Assembly (NCBI GenBank): GCA_022824265.1 | Contig: JAJEAG010000070.1 | Coordinates: 1-34,492 of the forward strand | Source of the DNA: Candidatus Poribacteria bacterium | GTDB taxonomy: Bacteria > Poribacteria > WGA-4E > WGA-3G | DNA: 34,492 bases | Direction: 5' to 3' | Part shown: in pieces, positions 31,338 through 34,492 of the stretch | How positions within the stretch are numbered: the first letter of the stretch is position 1 | Layout of the letters: every line of letters starts with the position of its first letter | Notes under the pieces: model-generated | What the model was told of the DNA's origin: nothing | What the model saw: the letters and a program-made list of their open reading frames with translations, nothing else | Databases searched by the model: none | Made by a program: the position numbers and the translations under genes

Positions 31338-32108
31338 TTAGTAGACAGTTTTCAAATTTCCCCATGTAGTTGAAAGTTTGGCAAGCGGATCTACAGGTGT
31401 GGCTTGGGAACTTATATTTTTAAGTGCATTAATGTCATCTCCACTAAGCGCACGGTTCCAAAGACGCACTTCATCAATCATACCTGTAAATACGTTATTG
31501 GGTCTATCGCAATCTTGTGCGATTCGCAATGGATCATCAATAGATTTGAGTGCACCGGGAACAGCACCTTCACCAATGATCTCGCCATCAATATAAAGTT
31601 TTGCTATTTCACCATCGTTAGTAAAAGCAACATTCACCCACTTGTTGGTTTCAGGTAAGTCAGCATTGACATCAGCACGACCTTCTTCGGTTTCAAAACG
31701 GAGTTTGAAAGTGCCTTTTTCACTGAACAACCCGTATTGTCCTCTACCACCACATCCACCGTGGACAGACTTACCGACTATTTGACGGGTGCCATCCCAA
31801 GTTTCCGCATATATCCATGCCATAAAGGTACATTCATTCACGTTGAGGGCATCAGTACTTTCAACGGTAACCCAAGTACCACTTCCACCACCAGCAAATT
31901 TCAACGCTTTTCCAAATTTACCATCTACCCAAGTAGGATTATCAATCGTTCCATGGTGTTCGTTACCACTGATATCTTCAGCAATATTACCTGATCCTTC
32001 ATCAAATGAAAAATTTAGCACCAGTCCTTCTGAATAATCACCTCGGGTAATGAAAGGTGTTAGCAATACAAGAGCTATAGCTATTGTTACAATTTTAACT
32101 TTAAACAT
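31338..32108 (-). CDS. Secreted LamG-domain protein (paralogue 1)
   Basis: A 256-residue exported protein: signal peptide at residues 1-22, then one concanavalin-like LamG/LamGL domain (GLVLNFSFDEGSGNIAEDISGNEHHG to IDEVRLWNRALSGDDI). Such domains bind carbohydrate or protein ligands at the cell surface. The tail PLAKLSTTWGNLK is shared with the next gene and may be a sorting or anchoring signal. The middle (about NECTFMAW to KLRFETE) is almost identical at the DNA level to the paralogue. AGGAGGAAG lies 5 bases before the ATG. It follows paralogue 2 by 21 bases, so both are probably cotranscribed. Confidence 0.88.
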   Translation of the reverse strand: MFKVKIVTIAIALVLLTPFITRGDYSEGLVLNFSFDEGSGNIAEDISGNEHHGTIDNPTWVDGKFGKALKFAGGGSGTWVTVESTDALNVNECTFMAWIYAETWDGTRQIVGKSVHGGCGGRGQYGLFSEKGTFKLRFETEEGRADVNADLPETNKWVNVAFTNDGEIAKLYIDGEIIGEGAVPGALKSIDDPLRIAQDCDRPNNVFTGMIDEVRLWNRALSGDDINALKNISSQATPVDPLAKLSTTWGNLKTVY

Positions 32109-32129: not shown

Positions 32130-32978
32130 TTAGAAAATAAATTTTATTTTTCCCCAAGTAGTTGATAGTTTGTCAGTTGGGTTTACAGCCAGAACTTGAT
32201 CTACACCTTGGTCTTTATACTGATTAATATCGTTTTCACTTAAGGAACGATTCCAAAGACGAACTTCGTCTATCATACCTGCAAAAACATTATTAGGTCT
32301 ATCGCAATCTTGTGCAATCCTCAAAGGATCCTCATTCGTTTTTAGTTTACCTGGAATATTACCAACCATTACTTCTTTTCCATCTATATAGATTTTTCCA
32401 GTTTTACCATCATTAGTAAAAGCGACATGGATCCACTTTTCGGTTTCAGGCAAGTCAGCATTGATGTCCGCGCGACCACCTTCGGTTTCAAAACGGAGTT
32501 TGAAAGTGCCTTTTTCACTGAACAACCCGTATTGTCCTCTACCGCCACATCCACCGTGGACAGACTTACCGACTATTTGACGGGTGCCATCCCAAGTTTC
32601 CGCATATATCCATGCCATAAAGGTACATTCATTTACATTTATGGCATCAGTACTTTCTACAGTAACAAAAGTACCACTGCCAGCACCATTAAATTTCAAT
32701 GCTGATTTAAATTTACCTTCTACCCAATTTGGAAGGTCAATTTTTCCATCATGACCATTTCCGCTGATATCCTCTGCGATATCACCATTACCTTTATCAT
32801 AAGAATGATAGAGTATTAACCCATCCGAAAAGTCTGCAGAATTAACAAGTGGCACCGATAATAAAACTAAAGTAAACAATAATATATATCTCAACATATT
32901 CTGGAAATTGACACCGTTGTAAATCAACGAATCTAATTTCATATTAGGAATTATCGTGGTTTTTGTGTGCAATTTCAT
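32130..32978 (-). CDS. Secreted LamG-domain protein (paralogue 2)
   Basis: A 282-residue paralogue of the gene at 31338. It has one LamG domain and a tail, DKLSTTWGKIKFIF. The ribosome binding site AGGAGGAAAC supports the start at 32978, which places about 27 residues before the hydrophobic signal core (LRYILLFTLVLLSVPLVNSA, about 29-48). A start at the internal Met28 would give a normal signal peptide but has no ribosome binding site. It is first in a two-gene operon behind a promoter overlapped by a palindrome. Confidence 0.85.
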   Translation of the reverse strand: MKLHTKTTIIPNMKLDSLIYNGVNFQNMLRYILLFTLVLLSVPLVNSADFSDGLILYHSYDKGNGDIAEDISGNGHDGKIDLPNWVEGKFKSALKFNGAGSGTFVTVESTDAINVNECTFMAWIYAETWDGTRQIVGKSVHGGCGGRGQYGLFSEKGTFKLRFETEGGRADINADLPETEKWIHVAFTNDGKTGKIYIDGKEVMVGNIPGKLKTNEDPLRIAQDCDRPNNVFAGMIDEVRLWNRSLSENDINQYKDQGVDQVLAVNPTDKLSTTWGKIKFIF

Positions 32979-33058: not shown

Positions 33059-34240
33059 TTAGATTACCTCCATCCAAACACCTGGTACAAATCCCGGATA
33101 CTTACCTTCACTAAATGCGGGATAATACTCCCCCTCACTTGTAAAATCGTGAACTGATTCCCCCCCATCTGGGTTAGGTATATGTACCCTGCAAATATAG
33201 TCGCTCTGTTGGAATAACTGTTGCGGTGTAGGTGTAGATGGGTCAACACGATACGCTGCTAATGCGTCCTCATCTATTGTAACCCCCAAACCGGGTGTAT
33301 CAGGAACTTGTATTTCACCATCAACGACTTCAAGTCGTTTCTCGAGCAGATCTGATTCCCACAACTCATGACAAGTGATAGCTGGCAATTCTGCCTGTGA
33401 AAGCACAGCACCAAGATGTACACAGTATGCTGTTGTTATACCAGTACCAACCATTTGTAACCAAAACGGTTGATCGAATGAAGAACAGATCGCATTTGTT
33501 CGTTGTAATGATTTGACACTACCTCCAACAACAAACCCACCACAACAACGTGCGTGTAGGCATGATTCATTGTAATGTTCAACGATACGTTTTTCAACCG
33601 CTTCTTGTAGTCTCTTCGCTCCTTCTATATCAGTTCCAAGATAGAATGGACTTTCGTAGATGGCTACATTTGGATGTTGGTCTAACTTCTGTAACACAGG
33701 TATAGCATTGTCTGGTGTTAGCAGAAAACCGTTGAAGTCAATATCAAGACGATAGTCATCTGGTACAGCATCGCCAACAGCGTCAACTTGTGCGTATATA
33801 TCGCGCCAAGGTCTTGCTTTCAACTTCGCAGATGTATAACCACGTTTGACAGATTCTTGTACTTCAGCAACCCAATCTTCCGGTGGCATGTCGATATCCC
33901 ACCAAGAAATAGGACATTTATCCCGCACTTTAGGACCTATCAAGTCAGACACAGGCACACCGACCGTTTTTCCAACAGCATCATAGAGTGACATCTGGAT
34001 ACCAAATCCTACGCCATCATTATTCATACATGCATAAGGATTTTGCCCTACTAAACCTTCAATATTACCTGATTCATTATAAAGATTATCACCATATCCA
34101 ACTACTCCATTACTCAGTTCCGTACGGTAAACATAGACTCTCTCACCATGTGTTGCAGCACGGTTCATATGACGACTAACGCGGTCACAGTAAAAGGGAA
34201 TATTCAAAGTTATTGTCTCAATGTTTTTGATACTTAGCAT
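33059..34240 (-). CDS. Enolase-superfamily (mandelate racemase/dehydratase-like) enzyme
   Basis: A 393-residue protein of the mandelate racemase / muconate lactonizing branch. The barrel shows the KxK motif (Lys139, Lys141), and metal ligands Asp168 (LDIDFNG) and Glu196 (IYESPF); the third ligand is probably the acidic residue in EHYNES near 221-225. It should abstract the alpha proton of a carboxylate and racemise or dehydrate a sugar acid; the substrate is not assignable. GGGAGG lies 7 bases before the ATG. An IS200/IS605-type element ends about 45 bases upstream on the same strand, so its expression may be affected by that insertion. Confidence 0.9.
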   Translation of the reverse strand: MLSIKNIETITLNIPFYCDRVSRHMNRAATHGERVYVYRTELSNGVVGYGDNLYNESGNIEGLVGQNPYACMNNDGVGFGIQMSLYDAVGKTVGVPVSDLIGPKVRDKCPISWWDIDMPPEDWVAEVQESVKRGYTSAKLKARPWRDIYAQVDAVGDAVPDDYRLDIDFNGFLLTPDNAIPVLQKLDQHPNVAIYESPFYLGTDIEGAKRLQEAVEKRIVEHYNESCLHARCCGGFVVGGSVKSLQRTNAICSSFDQPFWLQMVGTGITTAYCVHLGAVLSQAELPAITCHELWESDLLEKRLEVVDGEIQVPDTPGLGVTIDEDALAAYRVDPSTPTPQQLFQQSDYICRVHIPNPDGGESVHDFTSEGEYYPAFSEGKYPGFVPGVWMEVI

Positions 34241-34286
34241 CTTATTCCTCCCAGCTATTAGTTAGAACCAAATTGTAGCATAGATC

Positions 34287-34430
34287 TGACATACTCCGAA
34301 GTCTAAAGACTTGGGGTTCTTTCCTTGATTGTATCAAGGTTTCCTGCTGACGCAGGACAACATTGGACTTCTAATCTGCGTCCAACGGGCGTTGCCATAG
34401 ACACCACTACGGGGTTGCCAAAACAACCCA
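34287..34430 (-). ncRNA. Predicted omega RNA at the tnpB 3' end
   Basis: Five successive hairpins span the tnpB terminus: 34412-34429 (6-base stem), 34363-34385 (6), 34342-34357 (6), 34323-34339 (7) and 34296-34315 (5, plus 2 pairs after a mismatch). The last ends near TGTCA (34291-34287), the probable element end. In TnpB systems the guide RNA scaffold overlaps the gene end, and the guide is the flanking DNA read next. Confidence 0.6.
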
Positions 34431-34492
34431 GATACTTTTTTCTTATATTCAGCGCACCAACACCATCGCGATGATTGGAAAATCCACATTTA
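34303..34492 (-). CDS. tnpB: TnpB-type RNA-guided nuclease, C-terminal part
   Basis: An open frame enters from the right edge and ends at TAG 34305-34303; 63 codons are in the window. It begins at the last zinc-ribbon half (KCGFSNHRD) and contains the RuvC-III type signature NHRDGVGALNI, where the Asp is catalytic, followed by a variable basic tail. This is the usual end of TnpB from IS200/IS605 elements. The rest of the gene, and whether a tnpA partner exists, lie beyond the window. The 3' part overlaps the structured RNA region. Confidence 0.82.
   Translation of the reverse strand, partial: KCGFSNHRDGVGALNIRKKYLGCFGNPVVVSMATPVGRRLEVQCCPASAGNLDTIKERTPSL

What the first reader, a model, noticed from the sequence alone, without database searches (positions are those of the whole stretch)
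34287..34430. A five-hairpin omega RNA overlapping the tnpB end, with a readable guide
Five perfect or near-perfect stems occur back to back in 135 bases, far more order than a coding end needs, and they stop at the hairpin typical of an IS200/IS605 right end. TnpB is known to use a guide RNA that starts inside its gene and runs into the flank. Here the guide would be the minus-strand bases just below about 34287, beginning GATCTATGCTACAATTTGG.
Basis: partly seen in the sequence, partly recalled or inferred. Interest (0 to 1): 0.72.

Follow-up and report, generated by a model that had tools for sequence, protein, structure and literature searches.

The report
TnpB guide-RNA end of a transposon
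The right edge of this Poribacteria contig carries the tail of a small jumping gene whose last 150 bases fold into a conserved guide-RNA scaffold for its RNA-guided nuclease TnpB; the kind is known, but related elements confirm the folds, the element's exact edge and its guide unusually clearly.

Summary
Window 34286-34491 (minus strand) is the 3' end of a tnpB-only IS200/IS605 element, one of seven right-end copies in this Poribacteria genome. Six stems, not five, lie in 34296-34429. Across 59 related elements five of them are 92% paired, with double compensatory changes at 20 of 31 pairs; every slid control stays at or below 51%. The terminal hairpin also covaries.

One correction: the element ends at 34286, not 34287. 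All seven copies carry G there and then diverge, so the guide starts ATCTATGCTACAATTTGG at 34285.

Three further results. (1) The 4th base of the DNA guide tetranucleotide before the hairpin (GAAC) pairs with the last base of the cleavage site (TCAG). Relatives show T:A, C:G, G:C and A:T, with one exception. (2) A pseudoknot joins the last bases (UGUCA) to the loop of stem 2 (UGGCA). It covaries in several lineages but fails in one subgroup. (3) Left ends give target/TAM TTAT. TnpB has the alternative RuvC-II glutamate.

RNA production and cutting are inferred, not shown. This is a new, well-supported member of a known kind.

The parts
34286..34491 (-). 3' part of a tnpB-only IS200/IS605 element; the rest is cut off by the contig end (5' part seen in sister copy C46)
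   Evidence: seven near-identical right-end copies in the genome diverge after 34286; left ends found on other contigs
34303..34491 (-). C-terminal 62 codons of TnpB; stop TAG lies in the loop of the terminal hairpin
   Evidence: the longer copy C70 (236 aa) matches PF07282 and PF01385
34412..34429 (-). stem S1 (34429-34423 with 34418-34412)
   Evidence: four of seven pairs with double compensatory changes
   Evidence: 100% of cells paired, three pairs with double changes
34393..34397 (-). 5' strand of the pseudoknot (UGGCA) in the loop of S2
   Evidence: covaries with 34291-34287 outside one subgroup
34361..34387 (-). stem S3 (34387-34380 with 34368-34361)
   Evidence: 76-79% paired, five pairs with double changes; the weakest of the stems
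34342..34357 (-). stem S4
   Evidence: 99% paired, e.g. C-G 34 versus U-A 25 at one pair; many relatives have the tnpB stop codon in this loop
34323..34339 (-). stem S5
   Evidence: 99% paired, four pairs with double changes
34316..34319 (-). right guide tetranucleotide GR = GAAC (DNA level)
   Evidence: 4th base covaries with the last base of CR in 51 of 52 distinct right ends
34296..34315 (-). terminal hairpin IP_R with UUUA loop (one mismatch in this copy)
   Evidence: several Watson-Crick types at the outer pairs
34286..34289 (-). right cleavage site CR = TCAG; last bases of the element
34287..34291 (-). 3' strand of the pseudoknot (UGUCA, positions -6 to -2 before the guide)
34266..34285 (-). 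predicted guide, ATCTATGCTACAATTTGGTT (about 16-20 nt of flanking DNA)
   Evidence: boundary; guide position and length by analogy with ISDra2 (PMC8612924)

Best explanation
This is the right end of a tnpB-only (IS1341-type) IS200/IS605 element in a Poribacteria genome. The last ~150 bases of the tnpB strand do two jobs. As RNA they form an omegaRNA (reRNA) scaffold of six stems and a pseudoknot, followed at once by a guide copied from the flank (ATCTATGCTACAATTTGG...). TnpB would use it to cut the emptied donor site, next to a TTAT motif, and so keep the element in place. As single-stranded DNA the terminal hairpin, with guide GAAC and cleavage site TCAG, is the right-end signal for a Y1 transposase acting in trans. 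Shown: the boundary, the folds by covariation, the GR:CR pairing rule, the TTAT left target, the overlap with tnpB. Inferred: transcription, processing, TnpB cleavage, the exact TAM, the source of TnpA.
For: Fold beyond chance. RNAalifold found four of the stems unprompted in 59 elements, with 14 of 22 pairs doubly compensated. Named structure of five stems: 92.3% paired against 83.3% shuffled and at most 51% slid; 203 double-change cells against 69 shuffled, 0 of 500 shuffles as high. Terminal hairpin covaries; GR4:CR4 is T:A 32, C:G 13, G:C 5, A:T 1, mismatch 1 among 52 distinct right ends, and GR4 changes 10 times on a TnpB tree with no extra joint changes (GR4 10, CR4 11, joint 11). Left ends TTAT with AAAA or TTAC with AAAG. 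Pseudoknot 130 of 130 at its two informative positions outside one subgroup. PF07282/PF01385; solved TnpB ISDra2 among relatives. Exact right boundary from seven copies and an unoccupied orthologous site.
Against: No transcript or cleavage data. No intact tnpA in the element and only one weak Y1 hit in the assembly. The two orthologous unoccupied sites read TTAA and TTTA, not TTAT, before the guide, and the left flank of this copy was not found. The pseudoknot fails at its informative positions in the GTTCA-ended subgroup (0 of 38). The terminal hairpin has a mismatch in this copy. Rfam has no matching family, which is neutral.
Confidence: 0.93

Rival explanations
1. The hairpins are only DNA signals for the transposase, or a by-product of coding constraint; there is no omegaRNA.
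For: The terminal hairpin with GR and CR is very probably a DNA transposition signal, and stems S1-S2 and most of S3 lie inside coding sequence in the relatives.
Against: Stems S1-S5 lie outside the transposase site yet covary strongly, and slid controls lose it. S4-S5 lie at or beyond the tnpB stop in many relatives and still covary. A 314-bp tnpB-less element in the same genome keeps the ends, while the scaffold model R1 gives only weak hits away from tnpB copies.
Confidence: 0.04
2. The TnpB is a nuclease-dead repressor (TldR-like) that uses the RNA to silence the downstream gene.
For: The element sits about 45 bases upstream of an enolase-superfamily-like gene and reads into it; the canonical RuvC-II glutamate is glycine (IVMGDL).
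Against: All 79 related TnpB proteins keep Glu six residues before the zinc finger (ExxxxxxCxxC), the alternative catalytic position of PMC10711439, and the RuvC-I and RuvC-III aspartates are found in 76 of 79 each. Rearranged RuvC-II can be active (PMC10278001). The copies are mobile, with varied flanks.
Confidence: 0.04
3. An ordinary intrinsic terminator or decaying insertion remnant with no current role.
For: tnpA not found; this copy has one mismatch in the terminal hairpin; contig cut.
Against: No T-run after the hairpin; sister copies about 99% identical and open reading frames intact as far as assembled, so the family was recently mobile.
Confidence: 0.05

Closest known systems
ISDra2 TnpB reRNA/omegaRNA (Deinococcus radiodurans; PMC8612924, PMC10097598)
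   Same: scaffold from the tnpB 3' end plus the right end, guide directly after the element, terminal stem with UUUA loop, pseudoknot using positions -6 to -2 before the guide
   Different: more hairpins in series (S1-S5 before the terminal one); pseudoknot partner in the S2 loop at -112 to -108 with a different sequence; predicted TAM TTAT instead of TTGAT; TnpB with rearranged RuvC-II
IS608 ends (Helicobacter pylori; PMC5934647)
   Same: CL/GL and CR/GR tetranucleotides with a hairpin: IS608 TTAC/AAAG and TCAA/GAAT; some relatives here use exactly these
   Different: this element uses TTAT/AAAA and TCAG/GAAC; relatives also use TCAC/GAAG and TCAT/GAAA
TnpB with rearranged RuvC-II (Ealt, PMC10711439; RII-r clades in PMC10278001)
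   Same: ExxxxxxCxxC in 79 of 79 proteins
   Different: RuvC-I is D-hydrophobic-G (DVG here), not the DPG of pro-Fanzors; IS605-type ends and, in relatives, Y1 tnpA rather than a serine recombinase

Membership tests
IS200/IS605 element (tnpB-only, IS1341 type) | subterminal imperfect palindromes at both ends | tested here: met
   right end; left end (from sister copies)
IS200/IS605 element (tnpB-only, IS1341 type) | insertion 3' of a fixed short target, no target duplication | tested here: inconclusive
   TTAT precedes the left ends inspected in the genome, both full copies and left-end-only matches; orthologous unoccupied sites show TTAA or TTTA, and the two flanks of one copy could not be joined
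IS200/IS605 element (tnpB-only, IS1341 type) | guide tetranucleotides that pair with the cleavage sites | tested here: met
   GR4:CR4 in 51 of 52 distinct right ends; GL:CL TTAT/AAAA and TTAC/AAAG
IS200/IS605 element (tnpB-only, IS1341 type) | Y1 transposase available | tested here: inconclusive
   one weak Y1 hit in the own genome; several relatives carry an ORF directly upstream of tnpB that reads as a Y1-type tnpA (by eye)
TnpB RNA-guided nuclease | OrfB_IS605 / TNB domains | tested here: met
   PF07282 1.1e-21, PF01385 1.9e-9
TnpB RNA-guided nuclease | D-E-D catalytic residues | tested here: met
   by sequence motif: alternative Glu in 79 of 79, RuvC-III Asp in 76 of 79; not tested in a structure model
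TnpB omegaRNA | structured RNA ending exactly at the element's right end | tested here: met
   structure by covariation, boundary; the RNA itself was not observed
TnpB omegaRNA | pseudoknot adjacent to the guide | tested here: inconclusive
   130/130 at informative positions in 65 elements, 0/38 in the 19 GTTCA-ended elements
TnpB omegaRNA | RNA bound by TnpB, flank-derived guide, TAM-dependent cleavage | not testable with these tools
   needs RNA-seq and cleavage assays

The most novel reading that the evidence does not exclude
The last bases of these elements carry three layers at once: a DNA code (the cleavage-site base that must match the guide tetranucleotide), an RNA pseudoknot strand, and, through its partner in stem 2, a TnpB codon. 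Lineages switch the two sides of each code together, giving a covariance-supported omegaRNA class for TnpBs with rearranged RuvC-II, shared at least in part between Poribacteria and cyanobacteria and not yet in Rfam.
Probability: 0.5. Interest if true: 0.5.

Novelty: new member of a known kind. Interest (0 to 1): 0.42.

Why it matters
Many TnpB guide RNAs are guessed from a single sequence. Here dozens of related elements in Poribacteria give a scaffold supported by compensatory changes, an exact guide boundary and a predicted TAM, so it can be synthesised and tested directly. It also separates, within one stretch of 150 bases, which bases are constrained as transposase DNA and which as guide RNA.

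Tried and rejected
Rfam scan of the region: only chance matches. Left flank of this copy via the orthologous unoccupied site of G009: the query was mostly a dispersed repeat and gave no left-end contig. Automatic right-end finders mis-registered some hairpins; the single true GR:CR exception left after checking is L093 (GAAT with TCAT). First automatic pseudoknot finders picked wrong loops where an extra hairpin is inserted; replaced by alignment columns and checked positions. A pseudoknot with GAA in the S3 loop, copied from ISDra2, was considered: it fits GTTCA ends but not the UGUCA ends. Solo scaffold copies without tnpB: the model's weak hits away from tnpB were right-end-only or MITE-like sequences. 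Terminator reading rejected: no T-run.

Full report
What is there. The window is contig C29 of a 100-contig genome. A search of GTDB species genomes found the close relatives of its TnpB in Candidatus Poribacteria MAGs, with more distant ones in cyanobacteria, an Armatimonadota MAG and an unclassified bacterial MAG. At its right edge, on the minus strand, an ORF runs off the contig end and stops at 34303. It is the C-terminus of TnpB: a longer copy on C70 (236 aa) matches PF07282 and PF01385 and, in the PDB, Cas12f and TnpB including ISDra2.

Boundary. The genome holds seven copies of this right end (C29, C70, C73, C98, C45, C44, C77). They are about 99% identical up to ...GAGTATGTCAG and then all differ. 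The shared last G is 34286. A second set of elements in the genome ends ...TATGTCAA, with A shared by all. In genome G009 the orthologous gene locus has no element and matches the window from 34285 onward at 96%.

Structure. The strand folds far better than shuffles (z -3.8). From 45 genomes with close relatives I took 80 loci and aligned 59 right ends of the same branch (alignment A1). RNAalifold, given no structure, returned S1, S2, S4 and S5, with 14 of 22 pairs showing both-sided changes. For the named five stems: 92.3% of cells paired, against 83.3% after shuffling and 43-51% when slid by 1-3 columns; 203 double-change cells against 69; covariation score 0.342 against 0.168; no shuffle of 500 as high. 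S3 is the weakest (76-79% paired). The terminal hairpin was scored separately because its alignment register varies: the second pair alone is C-G 18, A-T 17, T-A 13, T-G 4 over 52 distinct right ends.

DNA layer. In IS608 the cleavage sites are recognised by tetranucleotides 5' of each hairpin (CR TCAA with GR GAAT, CL TTAC with GL AAAG; PMC5934647). Here GR is GAAC and CR is TCAG. Over 52 distinct right ends the fourth bases are T:A 32, C:G 13, G:C 5, A:T 1, with one mismatch (L093). On a TnpB tree GR4 changes at least 10 times, CR4 11 times and the pair 11 times, so the changes coincide; five independent contrasts on well-supported branches all agree, although five are too few for the sign test to reach 0.05. 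Block exchange of the whole end by recombination could contribute to this count. Left ends show TTAT with AAAA (all own copies) and TTAC with AAAG in five relatives. The predicted target and TAM of this element is TTAT. The two orthologous unoccupied sites read TTAA and TTTA at that place, so this is not directly confirmed for the window copy.

RNA layer next to the guide. In ISDra2 a pseudoknot pairs positions -6 to -2 with -106 to -102, and the terminal stem has a UUUA loop (PMC10097598). Here UGUCA (34291-34287) can pair with UGGCA in the S2 loop (34397-34393). Across elements the two sides change together: TGTCA with TGGCA or TGACA, TATCA with TGATA or TGGTA, CGTCA with TGGCG, and in cyanobacteria AGTCA with TGGCT. 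The two informative positions pair in 130 of 130 cells of 65 elements; shuffled mean 113.8, maximum 122. This shuffle does not correct for relatedness; the number of independent switches is small (about three to four). The 19 GTTCA-ended elements do not pair there (0 of 38), so the pseudoknot is supported but not universal.

Protein layer. In the window tnpB reads through the whole scaffold and stops at TAG in the terminal loop. Many relatives stop at a TGA in the S4 loop, yet S4-S5 still covary there, which argues for RNA rather than protein constraint. The canonical RuvC-II glutamate is replaced (IVMGDL), but all 79 proteins have Glu six residues before the zinc finger, the alternative position of PMC10711439. 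PMC10278001 reports that a TnpB with rearranged RuvC-II can cut DNA.

Mobility. The element has no tnpA: in copy C46 tnpB follows the left end directly. Several relatives carry a tnpA-like ORF directly upstream of tnpB (read by eye). The own assembly has one weak Y1 hit, so a transposase in trans is missing or unassembled. A 314-bp tnpB-less element with the same two ends is present on C77. The R1 model found the scaffold with strong scores only in tnpB copies.

Judgement. The feature is a TnpB omegaRNA and right end, filed under IS200/IS605 with the target rule and transposase source inconclusive. Nothing here shows the RNA or its activity. Novelty lies in the quality of the natural evidence and in a covariance-supported scaffold for an Ealt TnpB group that Rfam does not list, not in a new kind of system.

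Noticed in passing
window 33059-34240: An enolase-superfamily-like gene (by eye, not searched) starts about 45 bases past the element end, in the same direction, so tnpB transcription would read into it.
   Followed up: no
window 31338-32108 and 32130-32978: Two adjacent, very similar secreted-looking ORFs (LamG-like by eye), probably a tandem duplication.
   Followed up: no
L016 (G000:C77, element of 314 bp): A tnpB-less element with the same left end and right end (MITE-like), ending GAAC...TCAG.
   Followed up: partly
G000, about 40 places: An ~83-base dispersed repeat, also next to the orthologous gene in G009.
   Followed up: no
L093 (G070:C9): The only element whose guide and cleavage bases do not match (GAAT with TCAT); possibly a defective copy.
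   Followed up: no
L071, L074, L079 and others ending GGGTTCAA: A subgroup with a shortened end (GTTCA) that does not fit the pseudoknot; may use another partner.
   Followed up: partly
window 34298: C in the terminal hairpin, shared with the C77 copy only; the other five copies have G, so two source lineages may exist.
   Followed up: no
L094, L097-L107 and others, alignment A1 columns 40-60: An extra hairpin inserted in the S2 loop of one branch (e.g. ATGGGTTCTACCCGCAT), inside the tnpB coding sequence.
   Followed up: no
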